Shown here one piece after another: positions 1 to 52,700 of a stretch of DNA of 64,000 nucleotides; within the stretch, counting starts at the first letter, position 1; every line of letters begins with the position of its first letter. Under the pieces are notes generated by a model. It saw only the letters and a program-made list of their open reading frames with translations. It ran no database searches and was not told the DNA's origin. The stretch spans positions 372,001-436,000 of the forward strand of contig CAJNAR010000160.1 of the NCBI GenBank assembly GCA_905220665.1, in the 5' to 3' direction. The stretch is from Albugo candida. Lineage: Eukaryota > Oomycota > Peronosporomycetes > Albuginales > Albuginaceae. A program made the position numbers and the translations under genes.

Positions 1-529
1 CTCGCAATCGACTCGAGTATGAGGGATGTAAATGGATTCAAGAAGGTTCCAACCGCAGATGCAAGTCGAAGTCCTAGATCAGTGGCTCGTCATGACAACT
101 GCCTATTCTAACTAAAATGGTGTACGAATACATAAATGTTCCGACGAAACGGAAAAAAAAGCATATGTGAAATTACACTACATAAACACAAACCCATATC
201 TAATGTAACATGTGTAAGACCACACGGAATGGAGACCCAAAAGCATTACAAGAACTGGTTGTACTGGAAATAAATAATCGAAGGTGTATTTATAGTGAGA
301 CTATATTGTGTGTACGCAAGTACTGGGTATGGGAAGATTCTTATCCGCAAACAAAACCGACATGTCATATATCCGCCTATGTCTCTCGACTTTGTAGCTT
401 CTGTGCTCTGTCTTTCCACGAATAAAAAGGCGGAGGTATAATTCATTTTCATCAAATCTGCAGGAGTATTTCAAACTCACAGGTTCTTTTTCACCTTTTA
501 AGCGAGGTCGTTCATGATGGGAAATGTCG

Positions 530-700
530 ATAGTAGGAGCTTATTATGCTGACGTCATGAGCGGTTGAGACGCGATTATTTGATATGAGCATGGGAGGCG
601 CACTAATACGGCAATAATATTGGTCTCTGCGTGTGAACACAGCCAAACGACGGATCAGTTTTTAAAATAAGGTTTAGCATACGAAGACAGTCAATGCAGG
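530..700 (+). repeat. Family B leader fragment with TGACGTCA
   Basis: The segment GCTGACGTCATGAGC followed by GGGAGGCGCACTAATA resembles the start of the family B segments at 8396 and 24890. It is a detached piece, since no B coding homology follows. The perfect 8-base palindrome TGACGTCA is at 550-557. Confidence 0.6.
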
Positions 701-1230
701 ATATGCGACAATCACGACGGGCAGCTGCCAGACGATACAATCGGGCCAAGTGTAGGTTTTGCGCGCGGTCTGCTATGTCACAGGTCGTTTAGGAACGACC
801 AGTCAGTGGGACATTTGCCTCTAAGTATACGAAAACATTCATTTCTTTAGACTCACATACAAAGCTGTCAAAATTATACTTCGTCATTGCGATGTTGGAT
901 CCTTGTGCACTAAATCAATACAGATTTTGTCCTCCCACCAATTATTATATCAATGCTTAATCTTGTGAAAAAATGACACGAAGAGTAACGCCTTATGAGC
1001 TTCCGAGCATCCAAGTGTAGCTGAACGTTCAGCTACAGGTCTACTATTTAATGTATAGTATCGGATATTTGTACGGTGGCCACCACTCATAGTCTCCGAA
1101 TCGTTGCGGTCTTCGAAATCTGATACAAGCAATGTCGGTGAGTGACTCTATGGGTGTAAATGAAAAGCTCACATAACCTTCCGGCTTTGGTTTATTGTCA
1201 GGTCTTCGAATACACTATGGTCATTCGTTT

Positions 1231-1520
1231 AATTCAAGAGGGACGATTACATGAAACGTAATCGGCATGGGAATCGCAAGATTTTGTTCTAACCAATAAA
1301 AGGTTCGTACAAGCCTGATGACGCGTTCGATTACCATTCGAATCCATTCTATCCAGTTCTTTGAGCACCAGACGCTTTACCAGTTTCCCCTCCCTTCACG
1401 CATATGCCCGTAGATGAAATACTTGATTCATGAGCACACTTGCGGCTCGATCGATCCTATGACAAATGGATCTCCACGATCGGTATACTTTACAAGTATT
1501 TGCATTCACTCACATTGGAT
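1231..1520 (-). pseudogene. Family C relic (GAGIK family)
   Basis: On the minus strand this reads in broken frames as a relative of the open frames at 14541-14822 and 10487-10816. Recognisable pieces include VKRLVLKELDRMDSN and a degenerate IKYFIYGHMRE. An in-frame stop lies just before the IKYFIYG piece, and the frame shifts after it. It sits about 500 bases upstream of the family A gene at 2031 and points away from it, as in the other modules. The function of the family is unknown to me. Confidence 0.55.
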
Positions 1521-1834
1521 CATTGCCACTTCGATTCGACTGGTTCGATGATAACAAACAAACACTGCCCCCACTACTTGATTGAGTGTCTCCACCACGT
1601 AAACCTGTATTTGTAGTTGTCGTGTACGCCAAAATCCAGTCAACAACATATCATAGTGTAGAATTGAACCGCACCATAAGGCCTTCTTCCCAAAAGAATA
1701 ATTACCTAATGAGGCGAGAAAACAAACGTTGACTCGGTGTATTTCACTGGCGCTTCGTAGCGTAGTAATAAAATGATGACGTAGAACGATCCATTACTTC
1801 AAATCAAGAATCAGAATAGTAATACTAGGGTAAG

Positions 1835-2030
1835 AATTCATATGACGCCCGTCAGATTACTTAGTGGGCAGGTCAGAATACGCGTAATCGGACGAACCGT
1901 ATTTCAATTACGTGTTGTCGGCTGGATGCAATCGTGTGTACTCTTCCACACTTTGTTGAGTGATTTGAACACATCAGTTTGATTCACAGTTCAATTCCCT
2001 TTCAACCCCTCAGTTGCCAACAACATTACA
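1835..2030 (+). promoter_or_regulatory. Conserved promoter/leader of family A gene
   Basis: This stretch is kept upstream of several family A copies. It contains TACGCGTAAT, a GGCTGGATGCAAT block, TTTGAACACATCAGTTTGAT and TCAGTTGCCAACAACATTAC ending at the ATG. The piece TTCAATTC at 1991-1998 fits the oomycete initiator consensus YTCANTYY. Comparison between copies fixes the start codon at 2031. Promoter function is inferred from conservation and position. Confidence 0.6.
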
Positions 2031-2510
2031 ATGGTCTCTCGCATATTCAAAGTTGTCGTTCTCGGTCTCATCGCTGCTGCAAATTCAAGTGAGACAAACC
2101 TTCGTCTGATACGATGCTATAGTCGTGAGACGACAAATGTCAAATATTATAAAAAAAACTGCCTCAACAATGGCGGCAATCCTAAAGATTGCTACAAGGC
2201 ACGCAAGTTGGCCCTTCAGGATTTACTCCTGAATTTTTTCCATACAACGTTAGGAGATAAAACGATCCCCATAGAAAGGATTCAACAGTACGGATTGTTG
2301 GAGATGGGCAATGCATTTAGGGCACTGTTCAGTAAAAAGGACTCGTACTATCACGAAGTTGACTTTCCAGTCGAGTGTCTGGACTATATAAAGGCACGTC
2401 TACATAAGAATGATGATTGGCGAAGTGAATTTGATAATGGAATTACACTTGAAGGCCAGCACCTATATGATATTTCTCGTTACCTCTATTATGATTGCCC
2501 ACATCTATAG
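2031..2510 (+). CDS. Small secreted protein, family A member 1
   Basis: A 159-residue intact frame. Residues 1-20 form a signal peptide (MVSRIFKVVVLGLIAAANSS) with likely cleavage near residue 19, so the product should be secreted. The mature part is small, basic at its N-terminus and predicted helical. Cysteines are at 29, 44, 54, 116 and 156. Shared with the copy at 15293 are C-x14-C, a CYKARKLAL-type block after the third cysteine, and a C-terminal LYDISRYLYYDCP block. The start is fixed by the conserved leader that ends at this ATG. No intron is needed. I recognise no named family. A pathogen-effector role is inference from size, signal peptide, cysteines and local amplification. Confidence 0.85.
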   Translation: MVSRIFKVVVLGLIAAANSSETNLRLIRCYSRETTNVKYYKKNCLNNGGNPKDCYKARKLALQDLLLNFFHTTLGDKTIPIERIQQYGLLEMGNAFRALFSKKDSYYHEVDFPVECLDYIKARLHKNDDWRSEFDNGITLEGQHLYDISRYLYYDCPHL

Positions 2511-3459
2511 ATGGATTTATAAAAAACAATCGATCGTCGGATAAGCCTTGCATCAATACATTTACACTTTTCTCACTGCGAGTCTCTTCCTTTCTTCGTG
2601 CTAATTACTCTATATTTGTCTCTGCCTTTTTTCCGACATATACTACCTGCAAGCAAGACTCGAGAATGATGTAGCCAGTCTTGTGATTGAAAGATGTATT
2701 TCTGATGTTATCACAAAGCTGAGAACAATATGTCGACGGTTGTGGTCAATATTTATGACTACCTATAACATCAGAATGGAGCGCCCTAGATATCAGAATA
2801 CACCAGCACGATGACACAGCTTTCCACAAGTACAGGAGAGTACTCATTGAGCTCAGTCGTGAGCGCTTGATATAAACAATCAACAAACTTGTCACTGCTT
2901 TTCAACACTTGAGTTTGATACTGAGCGTAATGATTGGAGGAGTATCTCAATCCAAAAGAAAACACGTAAACATCGTGGTACTACCGATATTTGCATATAA
3001 ATTGCTAAAAACAAAGCCCATAGTGCTAGTCGTTAAGCATAACACTTGTAGGCAACACAAGGTCATATAGCGAATCTAATGGCCACGAGTCCACCGCCCA
3101 CGTCCCACGATTACGATACGTTGGCAGCTTCAGAGACATACCTCTTCAATGGGTAGAAACCCCAGCAGACAGTCGGTGGAAATTCTCGACTTTTCGTGGG
3201 ATAGAACGTGTAAGTGTATCCAATCAGTGGCTTGATCGAAAGATTATTTCCAACAGGTCACTTCGTAGACACCAATCCAAAAGACTGAGATCTCTACCCA
3301 GCGCTTCTGACTGAATCCTCTCGCACCGTGCGCAGTACTTTAATCGCTACACGACCAACGGTTTATTGTATCCAATAAAATGACATGGGATGAGCTTGGG
3401 ATTGACGAGACGGGCGCTATGCCCAAACGTTTATTTCCACCTTCAAGTGATTCCACGCG
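2511..3459. other. Intermodule sequence, no gene seen
   Basis: No convincing coding sequence. Bases 2550-2600 are the conserved 3' flank of family A genes. Bases 2625-2740 (CCGACATATACTACC then CTCGAGAATGATGTA) recur in degraded form at 6640-6720, 16060-16080, 18800-18900 and 26020-26060, so they belong to the repeated module. Confidence 0.6.
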
Positions 3460-4701
3460 GTGTTCCACATACAAATCCTTTAAGCGTTCTCTTGCGCTGC
3501 TCGTGGTGAAGTGATGATTCCGTGCTATCTAAGGTTATAAACATCAGATTAGGTCACACTCGGTTTCATCTAGGAACTTGGAAGGATTTATTGTTAAGTT
3601 CTTATTTACGTAAGCGAACTAACAGCTTTTCTTCTTTTTTATTCTTTCATGTCGCAGAAAAGTACATCACTTCGCATATAAGAAGCTTTTATACTGTGTA
3701 GCAATTCACAAACGCAACAGAAAAGTACGGGTCTGCTGAATATGTTGTAAGGATAGCACTCGAAAGTATGCGCTGACTATTATTTACGTCACGACGACGC
3801 AATACTCTAGTAAAGCACTCATATGCGGTGTATCAGGATAATGGCAGGAAAGGAATCAGCACAACTCTTCATGGTGGGATCACGATCTGTTCATGTACTT
3901 ATTGATTGGATTGTGAGCATTGCGATCCGCGTGCACGGGTGGAAAAAAGTGTGCATGAAAATTAACAGAAGGTCATATTATTTTTGATGCGATGTACACG
4001 AAATACTCCGAAAGTGTTTAGTGACACGGATGTACGAATTGAAAGATTAAATTCGCCCGTGGTCATGCTTCAAGAACCATTGCTGGTTCAGAAAGCTATA
4101 TAAGAACCGGTACGATTTACTGTCAGTGAGGGTGCAATCACTTGTGTTGTCCCTGACAATTTCAATGCACCGAGGTCACCGCCGCGTGTAAAAATCAGCA
4201 GCAACAAGTACATTACGGTAGATCTTCCACTTCACGACACATCAGGTCAAGGAAATGTTCACATAGCACGAGTACTCTCGTGTTTTCAACAAGTAGTCTT
4301 TATATGAGAGCTTTCCACTTACGCTGAACAAAGCCTAGCAAGCCCCCTCGCTTCCTCGCTTGCCACATGCAACCCTTCTAGATAAATATTCTTCAATGCA
4401 ACGAAAAATCAATGAAGCGGGCCACTTCACTCTGTAAGGTATTGAACTAGAGATCTAATCTCCCAACGATCTTGTCTATTTGTGTGGGAAGATGACTCTC
4501 TCTGTCATCAATTTGTTTGAGTTAAGCTTCTATGTGGGCCTCGGGTATCCTTTATATTGTAAGACGTGGTCTTTACTGCTGACAGACATCTGGAGAATAG
4601 ATGAGCGAGAGCGATCTGCAGAATGCCTACAATCATCTCCACCATTCAGATGTTTTCTTTTCTGTCAGTATGAATTCTCATTTATGCTTTCTTCGGTTTG
4701 A
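3460..4701 (+). pseudogene. Family B copy 1 (unknown coding-derived segment)
   Basis: The block is alignable by eye with 7830-9420 and 24200-25930. Shared landmarks are ATAAACATCAGATTAGGTCACAC (near 3540), GGTGGGATCACGATCTGTTC (near 3873), CGAAAGTGTTTAGTGACACG (near 4010) and GGTTCAGAAAGC (near 4085). The last part (4480-4701) reads CGKMTLSVINLFELSFYVG, matching CGKMTAFAFNLL in copy 2 and a CGKNILSI frame at 52055-52291 on the other strand. The copies resemble each other as protein although each has stops elsewhere. No known domain was recognised. Here the frame is broken by several stops. Confidence 0.55.
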
Positions 4702-5529
4702 TGGCACATAGAGCAGTTTCCGCATGAAGCTCTTTCACTATCATCTACCTTTCCATTAATTCTGTCAAGTGTATACAATGTGTCATCCCAAACACTCCGG
4801 TCTACAATTTTGCCAAAGCTACTCTTGGTTGAAAGAAACAGGCAAAACAACTGTCCTTGAATTTCTACAGCTAATAAAGTCAGCTAAAGGATAGTCTCCC
4901 CTCGAGCTGTGACTCATAGAATTTCAACCTTTGACTGAAAATATTTCAATTTTGGGTGTTTGTTTGCCTCAGACGTGTTTGCATTATTAAGGCAAAGTTG
5001 AGTCAAAATGGATGATTAGTCGAAATACAAGTCCAATTCCTGTGACGCACCAAAACACGTATTTCTTTTTGCACAAAATAGTCAGTCTCCCCACCTACAA
5101 ACTAGCATAATCTTCCCTCTGCTCTGTGGTTACGCATTCCCGTGACTCTAATTCTTGAGGTAAAGTGGCAGGCGTAGGTAGCAAAATCAACGTTCTGCTT
5201 TCCTGTACCATGTGACTGTCCGATGATACTACTGTGCTCGCCTCTTCGAGTCTTATAAGGAATCGTTGTCGACGTATGATATTTTGGTGCGCGAGAATAC
5301 GAAACATGCGTTGTGCAATCTCCCTTACAAGCGCGGTCAAAAACCACTCTTAAATATGGAGATGGTGTTGGCAGCGATTGCCGTCGTAAACGCTTTTAAG
5401 AAAAGGGACTTATCTCAGTTATGGTCGAACAAACGCTACGGAACTAGACCAAGGCGTAATCTAACATGTTCTGAAGGTTCATTGACTCAATGCCCCAACT
5501 TTTAGAGACAATATAGATAAGCATTATCT
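4702..5529. other. No assignable gene
   Basis: Several overlapping short frames on both strands (5095-5505) have no recognisable motif and mutually exclusive reading. Nothing here matches the other modules clearly. Confidence 0.4.
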
Positions 5530-6045
5530 CTGATACAAAGGATCAATGCGAAAGCTTGTTGACATGGAGGTTTCGATGTTGCTGAAACTAAAATGCTTCA
5601 CGCAGGATTACGTCACGGCACCTGATGAACATCGTATATACTGACTTGAGCGCCAGAAAATTTCCCCCAGCTTCACGCATAGACCCATAGCTTGATTCGT
5701 GCTCTTACTTGTGACTCCAATAAATAAAAAGACATACAAGAATCGTTCACGATCGGCATACTTGGAATGTTTGCAAGCCAATGGAATCGATTCGATGTTT
5801 GCCGTTTACTTGGAATTAGCTGATGATTGATTGCTTATGAATATGATGACGCAGAATTGTACATTTCTTCAAATCAAGAGCGACCTAGGGTGAGATTTCA
5901 TGTCAGATTCGTTTTTAGAATACACGTAATGGGAAGAACAATCTGGATGCAATGGTGTGTAACTTCTCACCAGTTTGTCGAGGGATTTTAACACAGCAAT
6001 TTGATTCACAAGTCAATTGGCTTTTGAGTCCCCAGCGACCTAGAA
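5530..6045 (+). repeat. Module 2: family C relic and family A leader
   Basis: Bases 5630-5800 keep the family C landmarks CTTCACGCATAGACCCATAG and TTCACGATCGGCATACTTGG, as in 14715-14810. Bases 5885-6045 keep the family A leader: ATACACGTAATGGGAAGAAC, GGATGCAATGGTGTGTAA, TTTGATTCACAAGTCAATT and CCCCAGCGACC. The order is the same as in intact modules, so a complete module once stood here. Confidence 0.6.
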
Positions 6046-6420
6046 ATCCAATCATGCTCTGTCTCGACTGGAAATGCTGAGGATACACTTAGATATATTA
6101 ACTCAAGTACTCTACAAGCTGACATTCCCGAAAGTGATCTTATCTACATCAGAGGCTTATGCCGAATCCTCCCAGCGGTATATTGACAGAACTGCATAGT
6201 ACATTATGACCGTAAAGATCGTTGAGGGCATGAGATGGAAGCTATCTACATAATGTTTTAAAACGTTTTTGTATCTACAAGTAGTCCAAACCAATAGATA
6301 GATCAAATGCCACGTTTGACGTTCCTTCAACCACCCTTGTGCTTTCGAAATATTTGGATGGCTACGATCCAAAAAGTAGTGAAGAAAAATCATTGCCGCT
6401 TCTGCCAAAGGCTGCAAATT
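6046..6420 (+). pseudogene. Probable family A relic
   Basis: Directly after the conserved leader, no ATG-Val-Ser start and no continuous frame remain. The plus-strand frames are broken by stops. The call rests on position after the leader, not on recognisable protein similarity. Confidence 0.3.
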
Positions 6421-7829
6421 ATGTCATGTTCTCTCCTGTGATTTAGGGTATACTACCTACTTGCGATAATTATCCTCGCGGATTTACATTTAAGATGGCT
6501 CTATTTTGCCTTGCCAACATCTCCTGGGTCAACAGAGTTCCAAAGTAGTTCTTTCGATCAACGATCGTCCATGGTGGGATTCTGCATTAATACGTTGTCC
6601 CTTTTCCAACGAATGTGGGTTCCATTCTCCTTCATTGTTTTTGACTTCTAATCTCGATCCTCTTCAGGTGAATAGTATTCTACACGCAGAAAAAAACTCG
6701 AGAGTGATGCATCATTGTACTTGCTTAATCGATTCCAAACTACACGCTGGAATCCCAGTGGCCTTCATGAGGTGAGATCATTCCTAAAAAAGGAACGACT
6801 CGATCGATTGATTGCGTGATCTCCATCGCAATGTCGTGAGTCGACAAGATAAAGCGCAGAAAACGACTCACACCATTGCACCGACAAACTGGAAGAAGAG
6901 ATAATATGTCAATACTTTTATAACGCGGAGAAGAGCATAAAACCTGCTGCATTGACTGAGTAGAACACGTCAGATAGAGTCATATGGCCGTAAATATAAA
7001 ATCCACAAACTTGCAACACACTAAGACCGTATAAGATAGATGCTTCAAAGGGTACAATAAATTCTCGTTGTGTGCATCAACACATCATTTGATACAGTAC
7101 CTCAGATGGTACATTTGTTTCATCGATCTGCAAATCGGATTCTCTTGAGATACTTTGACAAACCGGATCAATCGTAATAGGTGCAAAGGATCAAACCTTC
7201 CCCGTAACAGGGTGACGGCACTGATGCGAGGTCGTCGTAATTCTCGAAGATCAGAAGAAATATTCATTTCACTCAAATACATAAATGTCGTAGGTACTGC
7301 CGTGAATCTGGATTTCTGCATTCAAAGTCTAGATTCCAAATTGTAAGCCACATAGTCCCTGTTGGCAAGGTATGGTCAAATAGTGTATTCAAGGCTTTTG
7401 TGCATGATAAAACAGAGCATGATAGCACATCGTCCGCGATAATCGCAACTGAACGTCCAGAGGCCCGTGCACAACGAAACGATACGTCTCTCACATTCGG
7501 TATTGTCATCACTGCAACGGATAGTTTTGCTATCAGACAATTCTTCGTAATACCTGTGTTTACGATGAGCAGATTGTGTTGTTAGTTTGCGAGGATGTGA
7601 ATTGCTTAAATGGCAGATTTTTAGTATTTCGATTCCCATCGATCGATCCGAATAGGAGAGATCTCCGCTGAACGCCTCTGAATCGTCTCGCAAGTTGCGC
7701 AAGACTATAATAACTGTACGATCCAAAAGGTATCAAACTGCAAACAATTGACTAATGCTTTTGTACGCGAATTCGAGCATGGTTGCATCGCTGAGTGAGG
7801 TTACGCTATGTTTAAGAATGGGTTACTTA
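6421..7829. other. Repeat-derived spacer without a gene I can support
   Basis: Bases 7120-7210 (GATCTGCAAATCG, then TCAATCGT with AATAGGT) resemble 19145-19230, and 6640-6720 resemble 2630-2740 and 18790-18900. These blocks belong to the amplified module. Open frames on both strands at 7085-7726 overlap each other and carry no motif. Confidence 0.45.
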
Positions 7830-8402
7830 TAGCTGAGGTCTTGTACTACGCTGCTCGTTGTGGAAGGCAATGAGTGACCGCTGCTCGCTTTATGGGTGCA
7901 AACACCAGACTTCGTCCTACTCAGCTTTATCTCTATCTAGGTTCTGTTGAGTCAGATGGTATCCTGGCTTGTGGTACTAACGTTCATTTGTTCTCATCAA
8001 GTAGTAACTTGCTTTATACAGCGGCAACTAGATAAACAGGAAATTAGCCATAGTCGACTTGCTTGCTCCGGTTATTATACACTCCTATATATCCAACAGA
8101 ATAACTATAAAGAAAAAGCTGCTCTATATGAAAAGTAAACTACTTTCCATCAAACATTTTTATAGAAGCGGTGGCTAGTCATGTGGCGGCCGACTGATTG
8201 GAACAAATATAGGCGCTGATTTGTGCTAACGTCACAAGCGTTCATAATGGCGAATGCCGACGCAAAATCCTTCAAAGAAGCGCTCATATTGCGGTGTTAT
8301 TGGAGTGAGGATATGAATGCAATCAAATTGGCAAGGTCCACCAAAAACGAGGATAATAGCCTAAAGTTCCTGATGAATCCCATGAAGCTCTCAGATTTGC
8401 GC

Positions 8403-8410
8403 TGACGTCA
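8403..8410. promoter_or_regulatory. TGACGTCA palindrome in family B leader
   Basis: A perfect CRE/bZIP-type octamer kept at the same place in copies at 550-557, 24895-24902 and 46652-46659. Binding is not shown. The sequence matches the classic CREB/ATF site. Confidence 0.4.
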
Positions 8411-8644
8411 TGAGCATTGAAATGGCAACTCCTGACGAGCAATACTGTAGATGGCGCACAAAAATTGGTGTACCGAAATAATGGCTGCAAATAAACCAGC
8501 AAAACTGCTCCACGGTGGGATGACGATGTGACCATGTACCTTTTGGAATGTGAATGTTGCGATCCGAGTTGTGAAATGGTATAACAAAAGACCATTTTCT
8601 TTTTGACTCGATGTGTACGACATATTCCGAAAGTGTTTGATGGC

Positions 8645-9420: not shown

Positions 9421-9969
9421 CTACAACCGTCCAAACTGTAAACGTTGGATATATATATTACTTCTATACTTGATACGTCTGTCGTTAGTACATCGTCTTG
9501 ATCCTTGCGGCATTGACCAGCACTTGTGCCACGCAGGGAACAAGAGCTTTCTTCGAGTGGTGGGCATCAAACAATGCGTTGACAAAGGGATCAAACTTAG
9601 AAAGGTCCATCATGCTATGGTGATCTCGATGATAACTTTCGTTCTTTTTTTAGAAGACAATCTGGCTACTCCAACAGCACAGGAAGCTTTGTAAATGTTT
9701 TCAAAAAGAAAAAGCAGAAGTTTCTAATTATGAGTGGATGACATGAACAAATTCCCATGAAATTTCAGATTCTGACTCTCTTTAGGTATGTTATTGACAC
9801 AAACTCGTGATCTCAACCCACGCTAAACCTCCACCGAATATAATAGATCTAGTATGAATTATCAGTCATGCAGCATTCCACCAAATTCAGTGAAGATGTA
9901 CATTCGAATCCAACGTCCTTATTGCCATCGATTTGTTCTAGTTCCCATATCGATCCGTTCGGCTCACGA
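9421..9969. other. No assignable gene
   Basis: The frame at 9470-9694 has no motif and no relative elsewhere in the window that I could see. I treat it as chance. Confidence 0.35.
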
Positions 9970-10480
9970 TTAGACGTTGAAGTTATGCACCCAACACGCT
10001 CTCAAATATCAGAGTTTTCCGTCGTATGAACAAAACTTTGGTCGATTTTTGTGGTACTTTGCTTTCTCCGGCCACTCTTGCACGTCCTTCGTCTACGACA
10101 ATATCAAAAGCACGTATACCTTTAGGTACACCAAAAGGTCAGCAGAAAGTGAGTACTCTCACAAAAAGTCTAGCGTGAATCTTTGTGCTCCATTTTAATC
10201 CCGTCATCTTGTGATACAGGATCATACCAGTGTACAGTGCCTGACGTGATTTGATTCCGCACAATGTCAGAGAAATGGTCTGAATGGCCGATCAGGATTG
10301 CAAATCACTTCAAGCGCATTCTTTCAAGCATCGGGTTAGGCCTATGTCTGCGCTGTTTTAGTTGATAGTGAAGTCTTATCACCTTCCAAGTAGCGATGAC
10401 AGATACATATGAGCGTCATCAAAACCTATCAACAGGTATCGATTCCCGATTATAATATCAAGTAAAATGGTAGGAATAGC
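9970..10480 (+). repeat. Segment inverted at 40340-40960
   Basis: The blocks TATGAACAAAACTTTGGTCG (10025), CACAAAAAGTCTAGCGTGAAT (10160), GATTCCGCACAATGTCAGAG (10252) and CCAAGTAGCGATGACAGATA (10387) recur as reverse complements at 40715, 40605, 40475 and 40360. The whole block is therefore present again in opposite orientation next to the minus-strand modules. Confidence 0.75.
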
Positions 10481-10486
10481 TGAACA

Positions 10487-10816
10487 TTAAGAATTCCCTT
10501 TTGCTCTGCCAGGTGCACTCTCACATAGTCGCGCCTCCGGCCGCCGATTCGATTGTTTCCAGTCTTGAATAAAATAGATGGACAGTCGACAAATGAGTGC
10601 GATCTTCTTGGAGCTTGAACACTTCACAAAAAATTCTTTTATGCGTTGTTGGGACTTGGTAGACATAGTCTTTACTACCTTGTGCACCAGACGCTCAACA
10701 AAGTCACCACTCATCTCCACGCATAGACCCATATACTTGATTCCTGCGCCCACGCGACTAAATCGATCAACTGACAAATGGATGTCCTCGATCGATATTT
10801 TCAAAAGTATTTGCAT
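10487..10816 (-). CDS. Family C open frame (GAGIK family), unknown function
   Basis: A frame of 109 residues on the minus strand with no signal peptide. The core is RVGAGIKYMGLCVEMSGDF, then VERLVHKVVKTMST and KKIALICRLSI. It matches 39992-40333(+), where GAGTKSFRYGICVKEAGGDF, VEFLVREILDTMHTN and NKIALICRLFI stand at the same spacing, and 14541-14822(-). Similarity across four or more copies in one frame indicates a real former gene. Its start is uncertain because ATG-initiated length varies between copies. It lies about 440 bases from the family A relic at 11255 and diverges from it. No known domain was recognised. Confidence 0.5.
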   Translation of the reverse strand: MQILLKISIEDIHLSVDRFSRVGAGIKYMGLCVEMSGDFVERLVHKVVKTMSTKSQQRIKEFFVKCSSSKKIALICRLSIYFIQDWKQSNRRPEARLCESAPGRAKGNS

Positions 10817-11119: not shown

Positions 11120-11303
11120 TTGGGTGAGGATTCATATTAGCACACGTCAAATTCGTTCCAAATAGTCTGAACAAGCGACATAGAAGAACACTATGGACAA
11201 TGACGTAACATCAGCTGCAAGCAAGGATGCGCAGTATCACACATAATATCAAAGTAATTTGAACGCATCAGTTTGATCAGAATCTTACCTTCTCAGTAGC
11301 CAC
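11120..11303 (+). promoter_or_regulatory. Family A leader, module 3
   Basis: It keeps CACACGTCAAATTCG, AATGACGTAACATCAGCTGCA, CAAAGTAATTTGAACGCATC and CTCAGTAGCCACCAGC, aligned with the leaders at 1835, 15105 and 39530(-). The ATG position reads ATATCTCTTC, so the normal start is lost. Confidence 0.6.
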
Positions 11304-11915
11304 CAGCTCGGCATATCTCTTCAAACTTTGTTGCAGCCATTATCGGACTTTCGACTAATCAAATTGTAGTCATTTGCTGCACAATATCCCGAGTCAAATG
11401 CTCCAAAAGTGGGAACCGCAATTGAAGGCCAATGCCCAGATGAAAACGACAGGGGCGTTACTCCGTTGACATTGCAGAAGGCAAAAGCAATCAATCCCGT
11501 CATGGCGTATATCGAGGTGCTCCTTTTGTTCACAATTTGAAACGTTCTTCAGACCAACACTATAGACGAGACAATAAAACTGGAGAAAGTACAACTCGCT
11601 GATGCTGTTAAAATCGTGTTTTACAGCTACCTCATGACTGCTGTAAGGAACCACAAAGAAAATAATTCTATAGTGCCTGTGTACCTCGAGAATTCAGTCA
11701 CATTGTTGGACTATGATGACGTGATTTACAGAAAGAATGTTACATATCCCAATTCTCTGGATCGAATGACTATGTTTGACCTTCGTCATTCCAACCCGCC
11801 TCGTAAAAGACTTGCATGGCAGCAATCATATGCACGAGAAGTATTTGGATCACTGGATCTCAATTCTCTCTCAAGAGGGTCTTACTCATCAGTAGGATGC
11901 CTCTCAATATCTTGA
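11304..11915 (+). pseudogene. Family A relic, module 3
   Basis: After a leader without ATG, the frame contains LTLQKAKAINPVMAYIEVLL, an in-frame stop, then LEKVQLADAVKIVFYSYL, and stays open to 11915. These correspond to the ARKLALQDLL block and the following IERIQQYGLLEMGNAFRALF block of the intact gene at 2031. The relic at 26395-26760 carries the close match VEKVQLADAVASMFYGYP. Stops and the missing start show that it is broken. Confidence 0.55.
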
Positions 11916-15104: not shown

Positions 15105-15292
15105 ATATGACACACGTCAGATTGCATACCGACAGGGCCACACAAGGGTCATAGAAACATTAGGTCGTGTCTAAATGGCGTAATGCCAGGTGGATGCAGA
15201 GGATAAGCAATTTCACACAGTATGCCAAAGTAATCTAAACCAAACAGTCGATTCACAGTTGAAATAACCCCCCAGTGCTAAACAAAATTACA
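15105..15292 (+). promoter_or_regulatory. Family A promoter/leader, module 4
   Basis: It keeps GACACACGTCAGATTGCAT, GGCGTAATGCCAGGTGGATG, AAAGTAATCTAAAC and GATTCACAGTT and ends AAAATTACA before ATGGTCTC. It aligns with 1835-2030. The GTG-led extension of the frame to 15275 lies inside this leader and is not the start. Confidence 0.6.
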
Positions 15293-27160: not shown

Positions 27161-27324
27161 AGAGGGGTTCACTGAGGTCAGGGAGTATCTTAGGGTAAGC
27201 ACTCTTTCGATCACCTTCAGACTACTACTTACCCCTAAACAAGCGTAATCAGAGTAAAATCCTTGCCAACATGTAGTAATAACCATGACACGTGGATCAA
27301 AAGGATGTGTACGTCTACACCCTA

Positions 27325-27403
27325 CATCAAAGTAATTTGGCTGCATCACTTTGATTCACAACTCGACTTGCCTTCGACTTCCCAGCAGCCAACAACTTTA
27401 CAT
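27325..27403 (+). promoter_or_regulatory. Family A leader, module 7
   Basis: ATCAAAGTAATTTGGCTGCATCACTTTGATTCACAACTCGA...CCCAGCAGCCAACAACTTTAC aligns with the leader of the 2031 gene. It ends at ATAGTCTC where others have ATGGTCTC. Confidence 0.65.
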
Positions 27404-34501: not shown

Positions 34502-34594
34502 CTCGGTCGTACTTAAGCGAGTTGAGAGACGGTCTTGCTCTTCTGAGACAAGGGAAACTTGAATCGAATCCAGCAGCTTTTTTTGGTTTCTTAC

Positions 34595-35948: not shown

Positions 35949-35999
35949 GATGAAGTGGTCCAGCGATCAACTTTTTGTCACCGTCTTGAATGGTGAGGT

Positions 36000-39073: not shown

Positions 39074-39529
39074 CTATTGGCGGTCCGGTTCAAAGCAAAT
39101 TGTAGCAAGCCTGATCATAAAGTTTTTAGCTCTCTGACAGGCTTCGATTTGCTCACGAGTCTTGCACACGTTATCTATATTTATTATATTTTTGTACACA
39201 GGGACATTCGCGTATACTGTTTCCATGAAACGTACAAGATCCTCGCCATTCAATTTGGAATCAGGATAAACTTTCTTCGCTCCAGCACCGAGTGCGGAAA
39301 GATCGAGCTTGGTTATATCAAGAGTCCCATGTGGTGAGAAAATCTGTTTAAATAGCGTGTTATAAGCTACCTGCCGCCACTTCCAACAAATCGTGCCTTT
39401 TTTAAACCATGGTAGGCTACCATCCCGATAAGGAGGAATATTGTCGATTTTAGGACAATTGACTTTAGACTCCACAGTTTTAAGACCGAAAAGACCAAAT
39501 AAAAAGACCAAGCTTCCAGGAGACACCAT
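39074..39529 (-). CDS. Small secreted protein, family A member (inverted arm)
   Basis: A 151-residue intact frame on the minus strand. The signal peptide MVSPGSLVFLFGLFGLKTVE shares the Met-Val-Ser start of the other members. Cysteines are at 25, 48, 122, 131 and 145. The first pair spacing is x22, so the cysteine pattern has shifted from the C-x14-C-x7-9-C of the + genes. WRQVAYNTLFKQIF takes the place of the ARKLALQDLLLNFF block. Assignment to family A rests on the strongly conserved leader (39530-39720), the signal peptide and the helical body, more than on overall identity. The longer frame up to 39568 lies in the leader. Function unknown, secretion likely. Confidence 0.75.
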   Translation of the reverse strand: MVSPGSLVFLFGLFGLKTVESKVNCPKIDNIPPYRDGSLPWFKKGTICWKWRQVAYNTLFKQIFSPHGTLDITKLDLSALGAGAKKVYPDSKLNGEDLVRFMETVYANVPVYKNIINIDNVCKTREQIEACQRAKNFMIRLATICFEPDRQ

Positions 39530-39720
39530 GTGTAAGCTTCTTGTTGGCTGTTGGGGATTCGAAAGCAAAGTGAAGTTTTAATCAAACTGATGCGTTCAAA
39601 TCCCTCACCAAAGTGTGGACCATTACATCCAGCTGATATTACGTCATTGAAAAGACGGTTCTTCCTATTACGCGTATTCTGGCCTGCTGAAGCGTGTCAT
39701 ATGAATTCTTACCCTAGTAT
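39530..39720 (-). promoter_or_regulatory. Family A promoter/leader, inverted arm
   Basis: The reverse complement gives GAATTCATATGACACGCTTC, GAATACGCGTAATAGGAAGAA, CAATGACGTAATATCAGCTGG, GGATTTGAACGCATCAGTTT and CCCCAACAGCCAACAAG. This is close to 1835-2030 although the coding regions have diverged much more. It includes TGACGTAA, a bZIP-like site. Confidence 0.65.
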
Positions 39721-39991: not shown

Positions 39992-40333
39992 GTGCGCATA
40001 GGTGCAGGAACTAAGTCCTTTCGCTATGGGATATGCGTGAAGGAAGCTGGCGGAGACTTTGTGGAGTTTCTGGTGCGAGAGATACTGGATACTATGCATA
40101 CAAACTGCCACAAACTGCGCGGAGGTTTTTGCGTACAGCGTTTCAGCTATAATAAGATCGCACTGATTTGTCGACTTTTCATCCATTCTATCTCAAGAAT
40201 GGAAACAGTCGGATCGGCGGACGCATTACAATTATACCAAAGCGCACATGGCAGAGGAAAAGTTAATTCTTTATGTTCAGCTATGCCTACCGCTTTACGT
40301 GACATTAGACCGGAAAGCGATATCAGTTGCTAG
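39992..40333 (+). CDS. Family C open frame, inverted arm
   Basis: A frame of 113 residues from an in-frame start that is not certain. GAGTKSFRYGICVKEAGGDF, VEFLVREILDTMHTN and KIALICRLFIHSI align with the minus-strand frame at 10487-10816, and RIGAGTK aligns with RVGAGIK. The continuing part (ALQLYQSAHGRGKVNS) matches ARLCESAPGRAKGNS there. So two copies keep about 100 residues in one frame in opposite genomic orientation. It diverges from the family A gene at 39529 with about 460 bases between, as in the left arm. Unknown function. Confidence 0.5.
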   Translation: MRIGAGTKSFRYGICVKEAGGDFVEFLVREILDTMHTNCHKLRGGFCVQRFSYNKIALICRLFIHSISRMETVGSADALQLYQSAHGRGKVNSLCSAMPTALRDIRPESDISC

Positions 40334-40339
40334 GTTTTG

Positions 40340-40980: not shown

Positions 40981-41009
40981 GCGAGATCTATAATATTGGT
41001 TGAAGGTTT

Positions 41010-46750: not shown

Positions 46751-49067
46751 ATTCCATCGCAAAGTCTGCATTTGCATAGTATAAAACCGATTACGGCAGC
46801 AAGAAAAATGTACCATGGGTGAATCTACGACTACTGTGAATGAGAAGCTGAAAGAACCTTGGTTGAAGTTGATCTCAAGCGCTTTAGAATTCACACATTC
46901 TGCTGTATTCAAACAATATTCGAAAAAGTACCAGTATCTTCTTCGTGCGTTTGTAATTGACCAGGATGTAGTCTAATCAGTTAGTACGAATGCTTGCTAC
47001 TACTACGTGCCATGCGAAGTCGTGTAGTATTATGCTTCATTCAGTTCATCATTTGACGCTTAAACACTGGCAATCACTTTCTCGTGCGACTTCTCGTATT
47101 TTAGCAAGCTTTTGAATTTTATGCCAAGTAGAAGGAATGTTCCTTTTGTAAAAACATATAAAAATATCTACTCAGCAACAAGTAATACTCGGGTAGCAGC
47201 AAGCCAATAGATTATACAAATGGATTTATATTAAAGTTTTAATGGTGAAAGATCGTGTTTTCTGTTTAGCCCGTATGTAGACGATTCTGGTCTACATATC
47301 CTTAAATAGGACACATAGATCCTTTGCTGCGCTCCATCACTAGCAGCGTAGTAAAACGCTTCGACAATGAACGTATGTGTGTTCCATGACGCAATGTCAC
47401 TTCGCGGTAAAGATACAAGCATTTGGCTGTGGAAATCTGGTCGCAACCACTTCTAAGATCGTTTGTCAGGTCAGCTCCAAGCGTGAAGCAAGTCTTCAAG
47501 CTAGAATTGAATAACCCTTATATAATACAGCTATAGTTCACATGATTAAATGATGCAACTTGCGAGGCAATTTTCGAAGTGTTTCGATGAAGGTCTCTTT
47601 CTTTTTGAATCGGTGATGCCTCGATTACGATCGGTTCCGGTTTCGAAAACGAGAAATGACTCAACCGTATATCGTTGTCAGCAGTAGAGTCCGTTCTAAT
47701 ATTTCATACACTGTCCCAAATATATCTCTAGCAATTATAATATGAGCAAGCTATACTTGGACACCACGTGATAATAGAGCCTGGACGTACCGTTGAGATA
47801 ATTCATTAGAGCATATGAACACTCATCTAGCGGTACCACGTGAATCAATTTACTTTGACACAGATATTTTCTTATATTTTATGCGTAGTCCACTATGCTT
47901 GCATGGGCAGAACTGTAGGTGATTCTCAAATTCTTGCTTGCTAGTAATATACTCGGCCTTCTTTACAATTCACAACAATACTTCATGTTACTATATGACC
48001 TGTCAAAAAGATGTATGGCTACCGATTAACACTCTGGACGATGCATCTTGATATTGAAAGTGACTACGATATTCTTGCAATTTTGATTGAGTTGAATGAT
48101 ATGTTCAGTGATCAATGGGATATCTGATATAAATGCAAGATGCAGCTACTTTGTAATTAGACAGACTTCGATTAATGTTGAAAATCGTCTTCGGCGTCTA
48201 TATAAGCACAATATCTGCCAAAAAAAGGTTCGAGATCCAACACTTCCTAGCATCAATATCGATACGTACGGAATTTGACCTTCCCACCCACTATCATTGA
48301 CACGAATCTGAATTGTATAAAGTGAACAAGTTTTTTTTATATACTTGACTCTATCTCATTGAACCAAGATCGCTTATAAGAGACACCATAATGCCAACCA
48401 TACTAATTCCAGACCAGCCCGAAGCTGCATATGCGGGATCCTATCATGCGAACAATGCCTTACTGTGCCATAATAAAGAAGCCGTGTTGGTACGCACACA
48501 ATCATTGCCCCGTACACCTATTCTAAATATGTGCCTACTCAGCTGTTTCCGCATAAAGAGCGAGTCCGTTATCGAACTCACGATTCAAATCCAATTAGCG
48601 TTTTTCTCTTCAAATTCATTCAGTACTCTTAATGATGTGCTGTGTCCTGAGAAAACTATGGTCATGAATTGATTTTATTTTGCGAGTTGTAGACCCTAAT
48701 GCTACAGTCATGCTTTGCAGTATACATCGTCATCTAATTTTGAGCATTAGCGAGAGCGCGCAAATCCATTTTATCGCTGGGATTTGAGCACTGATCACAG
48801 TCGTGGCCAAAACGCTTTACTATATGAATAGAAAATAGAACACTGATGCGAAACAATTTTCCTTTTGAGTTTTTTTGGCTTCAACTATCAGTTTGCTAGA
48901 AAAAACTGAGATTGGAAGTAAAGTAGTGTTATGAAGGAGACATGAGACCAATTCGTGAAAAGAAGAGAAGATTTGATATTGAAAAAGCTTATCAGATGGC
49001 CTATCTCTTTAGAGGAGCCATTATAGATCAGTCACTTTATGTAAAGGTTCATGAGAAACCGAGAAAT
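46751..49067. other. Long stretch without supported gene
   Basis: Many stops in all frames. The longest frame (48391-48672) has no motif and no second copy. AT-rich. Confidence 0.4.
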
Positions 49068-49552
49068 TTAAAATAGGTATTTGAGATGACTCGGATTGTT
49101 CTTTGCAATCAGCTGAGGATCCACTGGTTTCTCCGGCACAGACTTGACCATTGTGTTATAAGTACCTGTAAAGTATTCTTGTATAGCTTCCGGACGGCCT
49201 TCCCCGGGGTGACCGGTAAAGTTATCTGCTACTACTTCAGCGATTTCTACCATATTCAAGTTCGCAACATAGTTGATGGTGGACTCTACTCGATCAGAAG
49301 GTTGAGAAAAAGTTGTGAGGATTTTCTGAAGGATCTCATTGGTTAGCCTATTGCAATCTTGCCTTTGTTTGTACCCATGCAATTGTCGCGGAAGTCTTTA
49401 TTTTCAGAGAATTGCGAAGGACAATCGTATCCAGTGAATGTGAACGCAGTTTCAGGCTGCTGGCTTTCAGCATCTGGACTGGATCGCACAGAAACCTCTG
49501 CAAATGCAAAAGTGGTTAGGCTGAAAACGGCAGCGTAGTTGATGAAGACCAT
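49068..49552 (-). pseudogene. Family A member with one frameshift
   Basis: The minus-strand start MVFINYAAVFSLTTFAFAEV is a good signal peptide with cleavage after AFA. CPSQFSENKDFRDNC gives C-x13-C. Then the frame changes by one base at about 49357-49372 and continues as QRQDCNRLTNEILQKILTTF to 49068, where the third cysteine and the helical body stand. The end carries EAIQEYFTGTYNTMVKSVP. The upstream leader (49553-49700) is conserved, including AATGACGTAATGACAGCTGGATG and AAAGTAATTTGAGCGCA. A single indel is the only break seen, so this is a recent pseudogene or a sequencing error in a live gene. Confidence 0.7.
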
Positions 49553-49700
49553 GAGATAGTTAGCTGGCTACTGGGGGATCGAAAGCAAATGGACTTGTGA
49601 CTTTGACTCCTGCGCTCAAATTACTTTGATCAAGAGTGTATGATCGCACATTCTTTCCATCCAGCTGTCATTACGTCATTTTGACAAGACCTACGCGTAT
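49553..49700 (-). promoter_or_regulatory. Family A leader, second inverted copy
   Basis: The reverse complement keeps TACGCGTAGG, AAATGACGTAATGACAGCTGGATG, AAAGTAATTTGAGCG and CCCCCAGTAGCCAGC, ending just before ATGGTC. It has the TGACGTAA site also seen at 39530-39720 and 11120-11303. Confidence 0.6.
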
Positions 49701-50005
49701 CTAAGATTGTACAGTAATATGACGTGTATTGTAAAGGTCCTTACTCTGATACACGTATTGGTCTTCCCGTGTGAGGTAGCGTTGTATTTGCGTCATCTTG
49801 CTGAGTAGCTATCGAGCGCAAATTTGTACGCCGAATATAGAATGCTATTATCATCACCTTGAGAGATGTTTGTCATGTAAGATATCCAACTATAGACCGA
49901 AGGGAAGATTTGATAGGACTTGAGTACAAGCAGCTATAAAAGCTACCGATGTTTGGACAATCATCTGTTAATCAATCGATGGAAGACATCAAATGAGTAC
50001 GTTCT

Positions 50006-50405
50006 TTATTGGTTTGTGCGCAAATAGTGTTCATTAAGCTCCGCGTGCACCAAAAGCGGAGGGGAGACTTTGTCAAGGTTTAGATAATCGAAGTACTGGA
50101 TTGTCAAGGATACCAACGCGTCAACAGGCTTTGGAACGAAGTGTGTGTGTTTCAAAACGTTCACGGCCTTCACATCAATGACCTGTATCAACCTTTCTTC
50201 ATATTCACTAATGCCTGCTATGTCATTGAAATATGCTGCAATAGATTCAGTCACGTTCATATCATTCCGGGTGTTCCATACTGTACCTGTAAGATTCTCC
50301 AAAAGCTCTTGAGACAGAAATCACTGTTCAAAGCTTCCCCTAGAGCTAATCCGTCTTCGACCGCCTTGTAAAGATATTTCTGCACGAATGCTATGCTTTT
50401 TCCGA
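50006..50405 (-). pseudogene. Unknown minus-strand frame with frameshift
   Basis: AFVQKYLYKAVEDGLALGEA and NSDFCLKSF run to about 50310. The frame then shifts and continues as NLTGTVWNTRNDMNVTESIA to 50006, ending LLVHAELNEHYLRTNQ. The TGTVWNT piece faintly resembles TGTYNTM in the family A copy at 49068. It could be another family A relic, but no leader, signal peptide or cysteine cluster is visible. Confidence 0.35.
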
Positions 50406-51284
50406 TACAGAGTGTCATTTATCGATATAGCAAGCGCTACATTCCAATTATTGCGCGTAGTCGTAGCGGTGGTCTCATCACTATTGCGCATGACATAGTA
50501 GTATTCAGAATTAAGCGATAAGCCAGTGCACCTGCCATTATTAAGTCATTACTGGCGATGGGAGATGGTTAAGGTCATATGTTTTTGTCGTGGCTACTTG
50601 AAGAGCTGAAAGCCCTAACTCTTTACTGCAGTTTTTCTCACTTCGTAATTTGGACATAGCTTCACATTAAGCCACCGAACCAGCGGAAGACACAAAGCTA
50701 CAACAGTCTTACTCAAACAAGCTGCGAAGCGATACACCTGCACACTCGTCCATTTATTTCCGAGCAGACTCGTTTTTTGACACTTCTTGAGCATATACTA
50801 AATCAAAATAGCTGGCTAATTACTGGAGACTAAAAAATAATATACCGAACGTAGAACGCCTTTAGATTGATGACAGCACTTCCGTGGGTCCCGAGGTATA
50901 CTTGCTTTGGCATGGTCGCAAAGAAATGGGACGTGTATTTCAACCGAGCATTTCTTAATTGATATTACTTGATTCCAATGATTCTGTAACAGCTGAAGGG
51001 AATATAAGTACCTAAATTCAAACAATTTGACCAATATTTAGCTCAGATGATGTAGACCTGTAGTATTTCAAAACGCGTAAGATCCATACTTTTCAGCCCG
51101 AATTTGGCAGCTCGAGAAATTTTAAGATACCCATAATCGCGCTAATCTCAACACAATCCAGATTCGAGAAGATTGTGGGCCGGAAGAGACTTGAAAAGAA
51201 GTGTGTAGTTACATGAAATCTGATGAAATATCAGACGACCCAGACTCTTGTTACATATATAATCGATTTCGGTAGAAAGGCTCT
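50406..51284. other. Module fragments, no gene
   Basis: 50575-50680 (GTCGTGGCTACTTGAAGAG then ACTTCGTAATTTGGACATAG) resembles 40355-40470, so it is part of another inverted module. Otherwise nothing. Confidence 0.4.
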
Positions 51285-51430
51285 CGTAGGTGCAGATTAC
51301 GACGTTTGGGGAAACAGTACACGAACGAGCTCTAGAGTCTGATGTTTCTTCTAAGTTGTCTCTTTGTGTTCATGTCATAGTAATGTTCTTCCTCTGTCTC
51401 TGATTACATAAAAAAAAAAAAGATTCATTG
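51285..51430 (+). repeat. GGTGCAGAT repeat, copy 3, with poly-A
   Basis: GTAGGTGCAGATTACGACGTTTGGGGAAACAGTACACGAACGAG resembles copy 1. A run of about 12 A follows at 51410-51421. Further on, 51535-51700 resembles 56305-56490 (GATGCATCATTTTGAGT, then CAGAAGGTAG, CTTCATG) and 51935-51970 resembles 41270-41320. Confidence 0.55.
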
Positions 51431-52054
51431 GCACATTTTTTCTATGAGTGCGATGCAGCTTCTATCTCGATATACCTGTGTCTATAGTATCAGGTTCTTA
51501 CTCTTTCTTCTTGGTATTTGATAGATGCATCATTTTGAGTCGTTATGATCCGCTTTTTTCGAAGCGATTGATTCTTTTTCACGTTGGTGATATCTGCACT
51601 CCTGACTAATATTGTGCTCGTATATGATCAGCCGCAGCGGAAGGGCAGAAGGTAGATATTCCTGACAGAGCTTCATGAGACTCATCAGGATAGTGATTAG
51701 TGTGTTGTTAAGTCAAAGCAATAAATCATAATCCTATTTGCATAGAATTCTGCCCAAAAGCTTGATTTTGGTAGTGTTTAATGATTTGATCTTTGTTTTA
51801 CTCTGGAGACTCTTACGTTGCCGATACACAATCAATTTGATCGCATTAGTCCAAATAGGATTGTCTCAATGTGATTCCGATCTGTCCTCTCCACTTACGC
51901 CTCATTGAGTGTCCATCATTAAGAGAAGTGATTCTGTGGCACCGGTGTACTGTTCAAACTCGCAACGATCAAGAGGAGCTGGAAATGAGAGGATGTGGTA
52001 AGTAAGTGGTAGCCAGTAGTATTTTTCGTCTAAATTTGAGGGAAAGAAAACAAT

Positions 52055-52700
52055 TTATACACTTGAAGACAATCCGAGCCATTCTGGAGATTGCGCTGAT
52101 TCATTTATTTTCCATACGTGTGTCAGCAATGAAACAAGTATAAAAACAGTGAGAATACGTGAGCTATATAGAAGGACCATGCAAATTGATAGGATATTCT
52201 TTCCACAGAAATATACAAAAGTCTTTGACAGACCGACTCTCATGTTCACTATCTTACAGCATGGAGTGACCCACCACAATGATTCTCTCAAAAAATGTTA
52301 AACCATACATCTGGAATAAAAGCACACTTGAGGTCCGATGTAGAGCTCGCTTGTTGAAGGGTACTCGTTGGCTGTGATTTTCCCATTTGATTAAACTCAT
52401 CCATCTCGCAGTGGAAGATTCTATTGTGATGTGCTTATTGTTGCTGCATGTTACACGTGGAATTTGATTTGACCTCTTTCCTTCCACTCTTATTGACAAC
52501 GCCCAGTAGCTGCACCTGTATTAAAAGTACATCGTGCCGGCTGCATGGAGTTTCTGAACCAGAAAATATGCACAGGAATATACAATATGTACAATAGCAC
52601 ATCGTAATTCCATCATGATGAAGTCTTGCTGGTAAGGTTGCACCAATTATTTCGATGCACCATGATGTGAGTAGTTTCAACAGTAATTATTCTCTCCACC
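52055..52700 (-). pseudogene. Family B copy, inverted arm
   Basis: The minus-strand end FVYFCGKNILSICMVLLYSS (near 52215) matches VYLCGKMTLSVINLFELSF at 4475. It continues LVSLLTHVWKINESAQSPEW like LLLTDIWRIDERERSAECL. Upstream in the same direction GGTTCAGAAACTCC, CGGCACGATGTACTTT and GTGCAGCTACTGG match 4085-4150 of copy 1. Thus the end of family B is kept at the protein level in two distant copies. Frames between are broken. Confidence 0.5.

What the first reader, a model, noticed from the sequence alone, without database searches (positions are those of the whole stretch)
1..52700. An inverted, multi-copy array of three unknown gene families (A secreted, B, C)
At least eight loci repeat the same order: family C pointing away, about 440-500 bases, family A leader and gene, then often family B. 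The left arm (1-28 kb) runs on +, the right arm (39-52.7 kb) on -. Non-coding neighbours are inverted too (9970-10480 against 40340-40980). Such a decaying cluster of secreted-protein genes around a transposon core looks like a rapidly evolving effector-type locus. Families B and C have not been linked to any function I know.
Basis: partly seen in the sequence, partly recalled or inferred. Interest (0 to 1): 0.8.

Follow-up and report, generated by a model that had tools for sequence, protein, structure and literature searches.

The report
White-rust candidate effector gene array
A stretch of DNA from a white-rust plant parasite holds part of a large, still-changing cluster of related genes for small secreted proteins that probably act on the host plant; no convincing relative was found in the protein-family and structure libraries searched.

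Summary
The inverted array is real, but its parts need re-reading. The window (G000:C158:372001-436000, 38.9-Mb genome) comes from Albugo candida or a close sister. Families A and B are one superfamily of leader-bearing proteins of about 150-190 aa, usually with four cysteines at matching places. "Family C" is not a gene; it is conserved non-coding DNA upstream of the leader. The window has 10 copies of a promoter-plus-leader cassette, six on + (1.9-27.4 kb) and four on - (39.5-58.0 kb); three still lead an intact gene. The array is longer: 49 cassettes and 24 full-length ORFs in the 264 kb read. Ten own-genome searches hit only C158:223-506 kb and one site on C143. Copies arose by tandem and inverted duplication; a 6.4-kb stretch is identical to a copy 39 kb away inside an older duplication, which suggests recent gene conversion. 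Leader and upstream DNA are conserved; mature domains are hypervariable. No convincing Pfam or PDB match; the only named relatives are two uncharacterised A. candida proteins. CCG/CHXC motifs of known Albugo effectors are absent. Best reading: an Albugo candidate-effector family in one birth-and-death locus. Effector function is inferred; expression and host activity were not testable here.

The parts
1890..2092 (+). 5' cassette (upstream DNA plus leader) of gene 1
   Evidence: nhmmer E 2.3e-46, a training sequence
2031..2510 (+).
   Evidence: ORF; 100% match in own genome; alignment A1
1005..8524 (.). Core of a recent duplication or conversion tract: one difference in about 7.5 kb (6384 identical bases in a row) to C158 about 39.2 kb upstream, inside an older duplication
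5943..6069 (+). Orphan 5' cassette, no gene body found
   Evidence: nhmmer E 2.9e-19
9684..10787 (.). Non-coding flank DNA, inverted copy at 39965-41153
   Evidence: 70-79% identity
10487..10816 (-).
   Evidence: indels and codon-position pattern over 12 copies; no Pfam hit
11197..11368 (+). 5' cassette before a gene remnant
   Evidence: nhmmer E 2.8e-19
11370..11810 (+). Gene remnant, 29% to P0004, one stop
   Evidence: tblastn E 2.2e-11; its ORF piece alone scores only E 0.015 with the mature HMM
15155..15348 (+). 5' cassette of gene 2
   Evidence: nhmmer E 9.9e-42, a training sequence
15293..15784 (+).
   Evidence: ORF; member of alignment A1; mature-only leave-one-out E 6.5e-14
24620..24794 (+). 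Orphan 5' cassette
   Evidence: nhmmer E 7.1e-23
26330..26569 (+). Fragment of a gene body
   Evidence: mature-only HMM E 9.3e-5
27258..27411 (+).
   Evidence: nhmmer E 5.1e-19; sequence
27497..27934 (+).
   Evidence: mature-only HMM E 4.4e-7; relative at C158:288338-288673
39074..39529 (-).
   Evidence: ORF; relatives at C158:438496-438930 and 344079-344513; mature-only evidence borderline, E 4.9e-4
39467..39669 (-). 5' cassette of that gene
   Evidence: nhmmer E 2.3e-37, a training sequence
39992..40333 (+).
   Evidence: no Pfam hit
46759..46856 (-). Orphan 5' cassette
   Evidence: nhmmer E 7.6e-5
49035..49675 (-).
   Evidence: tblastn 78-81% in two pieces; HMM E 1.5e-12 for the body piece
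49492..49698 (-). 5' cassette of the broken gene
   Evidence: nhmmer E 9.1e-42
57890..58029 (-).
   Evidence: nhmmer E 3.4e-12

Best explanation
The window cuts through a single-locus, lineage-restricted family of candidate effector genes in Albugo candida or a close sister. Each unit is a non-coding upstream stretch, in most members with a conserved block 45-57 bases before the start codon, a conserved signal-peptide-like leader, and a fast-changing mature domain of about 125-170 aa with cysteines at matching places. Shown: one superfamily, one genomic locus plus one outlier site, duplication in both orientations, a recent identical tract inside an older duplication, conserved 5' end with a hypervariable mature part, many broken copies. 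Inferred: secretion during infection, disulphide-braced helices as a stable scaffold, changeable surface meeting host targets or immune receptors, and birth-and-death of copies with host recognition as the driver.
For: Organism: a neighbouring gene is 417 identical of 431 aligned residues (gap columns left out) to an A. candida protein and 57% to A. laibachii. Family: 19 non-redundant full-length members aligned, Cys invariant at three columns and nearly so at a fourth; mature-only leave-one-out E <= 4.9e-4 for 19 of 19 and below 1e-7 for 17 of 19, best of 2790 decoys 4.5e-4. Locus: ten own-genome searches hit only C158:223488-505922 and C143:505133-505653. Array: 49 cassettes at E<1e-3 in 264 kb, of which 24 belong to the training genes or their near-identical copies and 25 are further loci; 7 orientation runs, 0 of 10000 shuffles with as few; duplications at 87-92%, 89-92% (inverted), 98% and 99.4%. 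Recent exchange: 6384 identical bases against random longest runs averaging 392, 0 of 2000 reaching it. 5' end kept, mature part changed: over all 276 pairs mean identity upstream 0.468, leader 0.630, mature 0.389, downstream 0.394; in 10 of 13 pairs that I picked the DNA similarity block crosses the start codon and ends between +7 and +104.
Against: No expression, secretion or host-activity data. Leaders were judged by hydrophobicity, not by a signal-peptide predictor. Diversifying selection is not proven: pS is 0.46-0.49 and pN 0.43-0.44 for two of the closer non-identical pairs and near saturation in most others; downstream DNA is on average no better kept than the mature part. The flank comparison rests on 9 of 171 pairs and 98 four-fold sites, with flanks measured only where alignable; the pair of window A genes on + goes the other way (0 of 7 four-fold differences in the mature part, 3 of 9 in the leader), and blastn still finds short DNA similarity inside the mature part in 3 of the 9 pairs. 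The subgroup with 39074-39529 is joined mainly by leader and flanks; its mature-only score is no better than the best decoy. The window protein's model is poor (pLDDT 57.5).
Confidence: 0.75

Rival explanations
1. A relic array: a once-useful secreted family now decaying, with remaining ORFs open by chance or by recent duplication.
For: About half of the cassettes lack a full-length ORF (24 full-length ORFs against 49 cassettes); in the window 3 of 10 are intact. pN is close to pS in the closest non-identical pairs. One database relative (P0002) is shortened by what looks like a frame change.
Against: The cysteine columns are kept in divergent members, and four database proteins (P0001, P0003, P0004, P0005) keep full-length frames at 95-97% identity to members here. 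That all 24 ORFs have a leader says nothing, because the selection rule required it.
Confidence: 0.15
2. A secreted family with a role other than host manipulation (sporangial wall, spore adhesion, antimicrobial or mating), expanded at one locus.
For: No direct evidence of host targeting; no known effector fold or motif matched.
Against: Hypervariable mature part, no A. laibachii relative found although A. laibachii proteins are in the database searched, and a decaying cluster fit host conflict better; inference.
Confidence: 0.2
3. Assembly artefact: haplotypes or collapsed repeats joined into false duplications.
For: 6384 identical bases between two places 39 kb apart and five 1.8-kb tandem copies at 99.4% could be partly false copy number.
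Against: The identical tract sits in a longer duplication whose left part differs by 8-12%, and many other copies are 60-90% alike, far beyond haplotype difference.
Confidence: 0.06
4. The repeats are one transposon family and its hitch-hiking DNA.
For: Retroelement pieces lie in and between the arms; two LINE-like copies match each other at 66-77%.
Against: No Pfam transposon domain was found in the family proteins; ten own-genome searches found the unit at one locus plus one site, unlike a dispersed element.
Confidence: 0.03

Closest known systems
CCG (formerly CHXC) effectors of Albugo candida and A. laibachii (PMC3130010, PMC10087428, PMC12503489: passages read)
   Same: Albugo, secreted, cysteine-bearing, fast-evolving; elevated pseudogenisation and presence/absence variation are reported for CCG genes (PMC10087428), and about half of the cassettes here lack a full-length gene
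   Different: CX2CX5G in 0 of 24 and CHXC in 0 of 24 members; this family lies at one locus plus one outlier site in this genome
Ac-RXL / RXLQ candidates of A. candida (PMC3206522 section 7 part 1 and PMC4384639 passages read)
   Same: 12 of 24 members (8 of the 19 distinct ones) carry R-x-L-[K/D/Q] at residue 24, just after the leader; the published Ac-RXL consensus is LSSLR(ILKS)L(KQ)SL
   Different: The commonest form here is RYLK (9 of 24), with Y where the consensus lists I, L, K or S; the other 12 members, among them the three intact window genes, lack it; whether any published candidate is a member could not be checked (supplements not readable)
RXLR-WY effectors of Phytophthora and downy mildews
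   Same: Short secreted proteins; partly helical model
   Different: Strict RXLR in 0 of 24; no Pfam RXLR model hit at E<=0.1; PMC3206522 reports no W/Y/L modules found in Albugo
Clustered hypervariable secreted families such as conopeptides and rust/mildew effectors (recalled, no call)
   Same: Conserved leader and 5' DNA, hypervariable mature part, tandem copies
   Different: No sequence relation known to me; resemblance of pattern only, not tested

Membership tests
CCG/CHXC effectors (Albugo) | CX2CX5G or CHXC motif after the signal peptide | tested here: not met
   0 of 24 full-length members for either motif
CCG/CHXC effectors (Albugo) | CCG fold module | not tested
   no CCG sequence or model was in hand
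RXLR effectors | R-x-L-R after the signal peptide | tested here: not met
   strict RXLR 0 of 24; R-x-L-[KDQ] at residue 24 in 12 of 24
RXLR effectors | WY helical fold | tested here: inconclusive
Ac-RXL candidates (A. candida) | consensus LSSLR(ILKS)L(KQ)SL after a signal peptide | tested here: inconclusive
   RYLK-type motif in half the members differs from the consensus read in PMC3206522; their gene list was not readable
Elicitins, Crinklers and other Pfam-listed secreted families | match to a curated Pfam model | tested here: not met
   19 members scanned: only three stray single-member matches, best E 0.039
Oomycete effector candidates in general | secretion signal | tested here: inconclusive
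   hydrophobic leader in 24 of 24, but the selection rule required it; no signal-peptide predictor available
Oomycete effector candidates in general | expression in and action on the host | not testable with these tools
   no transcript or assay data

The most novel reading that the evidence does not exclude
The locus works as a diversity generator: a conserved 5' shell (core promoter plus leader) is kept alike among paralogues by gene conversion while mature segments are exchanged or replaced inside it, so that mature domains are older than the DNA around them. In the 9 of 171 pairs where both flanks can be aligned, four-fold sites in the mature part differ at 37 of 98 sites, against 22.4% upstream, 23.6% downstream and 12 of 88 in the leader; the pair of window A genes on + is an exception (0 of 7 in the mature part).
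Probability: 0.2. Interest if true: 0.75.

Novelty: new member of a known kind. Interest (0 to 1): 0.5.

Why it matters
The 2011 A. candida genome paper reported a largest secreted-protein family of six members (PMC3206522, section 7 part 1 read). A cluster with at least 24 full-length members at one place is larger and would have been easy to miss, because mature parts of about 13-35% identity (nine pairs) and near-identical tandem copies defeat clustering and short-read assembly (my inference). It names a concrete, mappable locus to test for race-specific recognition in white rust, and a family with no convincing relative found in Pfam or PDB.

Tried and rejected
'Family C' as a gene: rejected on indels and codon positions. 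The second-position deficit (186/790 against 237/795 and 237/787) was noted; all comparisons share one reference copy, so they are not independent, and 12 of the copies listed were used. I did not test whether C is a very old pseudogene.

Transposon as the whole explanation: rejected (see rivals). The Pfam scan of ten window ORFs gave RVT_1 twice, one chromodomain and one retroviral SH3 domain, and no match for the other six.

Core promoter: the conserved block at about -54 matches its own consensus at 20 or more of 26 positions in 13 of 19 leaders, and 15 of 19 exceed all of their 200 shuffles; the consensus comes from the same leaders, so this is circular in part. The published FPR motif MWTTTNC occurs between about -50 and -19 in 9 of 19 against 7.8% in shuffles (motif read in passages of PMC3599244). 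The published INR motif was not matched exactly in the consensus (compared by eye). A search for GATTCACAA in the window was not above chance (3 matches, mean 1.35, 18 of 100 shuffles reaching 3).

Rows dropped: the iterated HMM found 43 ORF pieces; of 25 picked by the leader rule, 289375-290022 has no true leader and was dropped, leaving 24. For one search, five near-identical copies were dropped, leaving 19 genes and 171 pairs. One search printed only the rows of 800 columns or more or over 95% identity out of 274. The decoy E-value is for 2790 sequences while the leave-one-out E-values are for 1395, so the best decoy is about twice as good on the members' scale.

Literature: seven answered searches, five of them with Albugo terms. 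None of the titles and abstract starts listed shows a paper on such a family, but the most relevant paper (Furzer et al. 2022, improved Ac2V assembly) is not held, so I do not claim that the family is undescribed.
Full report
WHERE IT IS. The window is G000:C158:372001-436000 of a 38.9-Mb assembly in 196 contigs. A neighbouring glucanase-like gene (C158:511534-512865) has as its best named match an A. candida protein, with 417 identical of 431 aligned residues when gap columns are left out, and is 57% identical to A. laibachii. Profile hits of the gene family itself include two named entries, both unnamed-product A. candida proteins. I take the organism to be A. candida or a close sister.

THE ARRAY. 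Self-comparison of the window gives 42 off-diagonal matches, seven of them from retroelement pieces, against none in 5 of 5 shuffles. Reading C158:252001-516000 shows that the window is the middle of a larger structure: 326-333 kb is a tandem copy of 365-372 kb (88-92%), 333-343 kb of 372-382 kb (98%), 342-365 kb is an inverted copy of 418-441 kb (89-92%), and 460.6-469.8 kb holds five 1.8-kb tandem copies at 99.4%. A DNA profile of the promoter-plus-leader cassette, built from 19 genes, finds 49 loci at E<1e-3 in 264 kb, 24 of them the training genes or their near-identical copies and 25 further loci; 10 lie in the window (3 training, 7 further); the reversed sequence gives none. The strands of the 49 fall into 7 runs; 0 of 10000 shuffles have as few. 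Inside the window all six left cassettes are on + and all four right ones on -; the switch lies between 27.9 and 39.1 kb, where LINE-like DNA sits (RVT_1 at 33535-34501).

ONE FAMILY, NOT THREE. Iterated HMM search of 1395 ORFs in the 264 kb gave 43 matching pieces, 24 of them full length (one further candidate, 289375-290022, dropped as lacking a real leader). The 24 comprise five near-identical tandem copies, one identical pair and 17 others, that is 19 distinct genes. Their alignment keeps the leader MVSxxFxxxVLGLxTxxNA and Cys columns at 29, 54 and 156 of the first window protein, with C44 kept in at least 90%. With the first 24 residues removed, each of the 19 still scores against a profile of the other 18 at E <= 4.9e-4, 17 of them below 1e-7. 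The best of 2790 reversed or shuffled ORFs scored 4.5e-4, so the subgroup of window 39074-39529 and C158:438484-438993 (E 4.9e-4 and 1.7e-4) is joined mainly by leader and flanks.

STATE OF THE WINDOW'S COPIES. Intact: 2031-2510 (+), 15293-15784 (+), 39074-39529 (-). Open mature frame without a start codon at the leader: 27497-27934. Broken: 49035-49675 (-). Remnants: 11370-11810 and 26330-26569. Cassettes without a detected body right after them: 5943, 24620, 46759 and 57890.

HOW IT CHANGES. (a) Recent exchange: window 1005-8524 differs by one event from its copy about 39.2 kb upstream, including 6384 identical bases in a row, while the borders of the same duplication carry most of the 130 events and the sequence further to the left differs by 8-12%. 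This looks like a gene-conversion tract inside an older duplication; an assembly error cannot be ruled out. The protein of window 2031-2510 is encoded identically in both copies. (b) Conserved 5' end, changing mature part: over 276 pairs mean identity, gaps counted, is 0.468 upstream, 0.630 in the leader, 0.389 in the mature part and 0.394 downstream. In 10 of 13 pairs that I picked the DNA similarity block crosses the start codon and ends between +7 and +104; in one it ends at +209, and in two there is no collinear block. Similarity resumes within about 100 bases of the stop codon in 6 of the 13. In the 9 of 171 pairs with both flanks alignable, the mature proteins are 316/1184 identical (my sum), four-fold sites differ at 37/98, the leader's four-fold sites at 12/88, upstream DNA at 536/2394 and downstream DNA at 456/1936. 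Against this: in the pair of window A genes on + the mature part has 0/7 and the leader 3/9 four-fold differences, and 3 of the 9 pairs keep short DNA similarity inside the mature part. Flanks were measured only where they align, which favours low values, so this is a lead rather than proof. (c) pN is close to pS in the closest non-identical pairs (0.44/0.46 for the two window A genes on +, 0.43/0.49 for C158:460970 against 476601), compatible with diversifying or relaxed selection.

WHAT THE PROTEIN IS. No convincing Pfam family (19 members, best stray match E 0.039; six further family proteins and pieces without a match at E<=0.01), no PDB relative by sequence (best E 0.58) and no PDB fold at E<=0.001. 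The model of the database relative P0003 (97% to C158:476607-477140) has mean pLDDT 75.1, helices as its main regular element, and block means above 70 from residue 41 on; the window protein's own model is poor at 57.5, so the helical reading of the window protein is by homology. Half of the members (12 of 24; 8 of 19 distinct) carry R-x-L-[K/D/Q] at residue 24, 9 of them RYLK; the three intact window genes do not.

DISTRIBUTION. Ten searches of the own genome, eight by protein and two by cassette DNA, hit only C158:223488-505922 and one site at C143:505133-505653, where the protein match contains a stop. The tool states that such counts are lower bounds. In 5.8 billion proteins the profile finds nine relatives, two named A. 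candida and seven unnamed. A. laibachii proteins are in that database, but none was found; the search needs shared five-residue words, so distant relatives could be missed.

MECHANISM, MOST LIKELY. Steps shown: duplication in both orientations, pseudogene formation, a recent identical tract, conserved 5' end, variable mature domain, no named relative outside A. candida. Steps inferred: expression in the plant, secretion, disulphide-braced fold, host target or receptor contact, and selection by host recognition. Probability that this is a functioning candidate-effector locus: 0.75.

COMPARISON. Published Albugo effector classes are defined by CHXC, later CX2CX5G (PMC3130010 and PMC10087428, passages read); 0 of 24 members have either motif. 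The 2011 A. candida paper counted six members in its largest secreted family (PMC3206522, section 7 part 1 read); the 2015 paper lists 35 CHXC homologues among its largest gene tribes (PMC4384639, passages read); the 2025 structural paper reports CCG as the largest A. candida secretome cluster, 48 members (PMC12503489, passages read). The paper on the improved Ac2V assembly could not be read. I therefore rate this a new member of a known kind, with the reservation that it may be listed there.

Noticed in passing
window 19286-19541 and 23543-23795: Direct repeat of 257 columns at 87% around a chromodomain-bearing piece (22972-23469): looks like the ends of an old LTR retroelement.
   Followed up: partly
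window 33164-37815 (-) and 59751-64000 (+): Two decayed LINE-like copies, 66-77% alike, in opposite orientation; RVT_1 pieces at 33535-34501.
   Followed up: partly
window 42829-43437 (+): Copia-like fragment with a retroviral polymerase SH3 domain; the label Copia is recalled.
   Followed up: no
window 17807-18244 (+) and C158:310856-311530 (L011): Two ORFs that look alike by eye, of a kind I recall as DDE transposases; no Pfam match for the window copy.
   Followed up: no
L020:4592 to L021:3767 (C158:460592-469767): Five near-identical 1.8-kb units, each with a complete family gene: the most alike part of the array.
   Followed up: partly
L025:5534-6865 against P0010: A glucanase-like protein whose Pro/Ala-rich repeat tail differs in length between this genome and the A. 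candida entry.
   Followed up: no
G000:C143:505133-505653: The only family site found off contig C158; its match to the window protein contains a stop.
   Followed up: no
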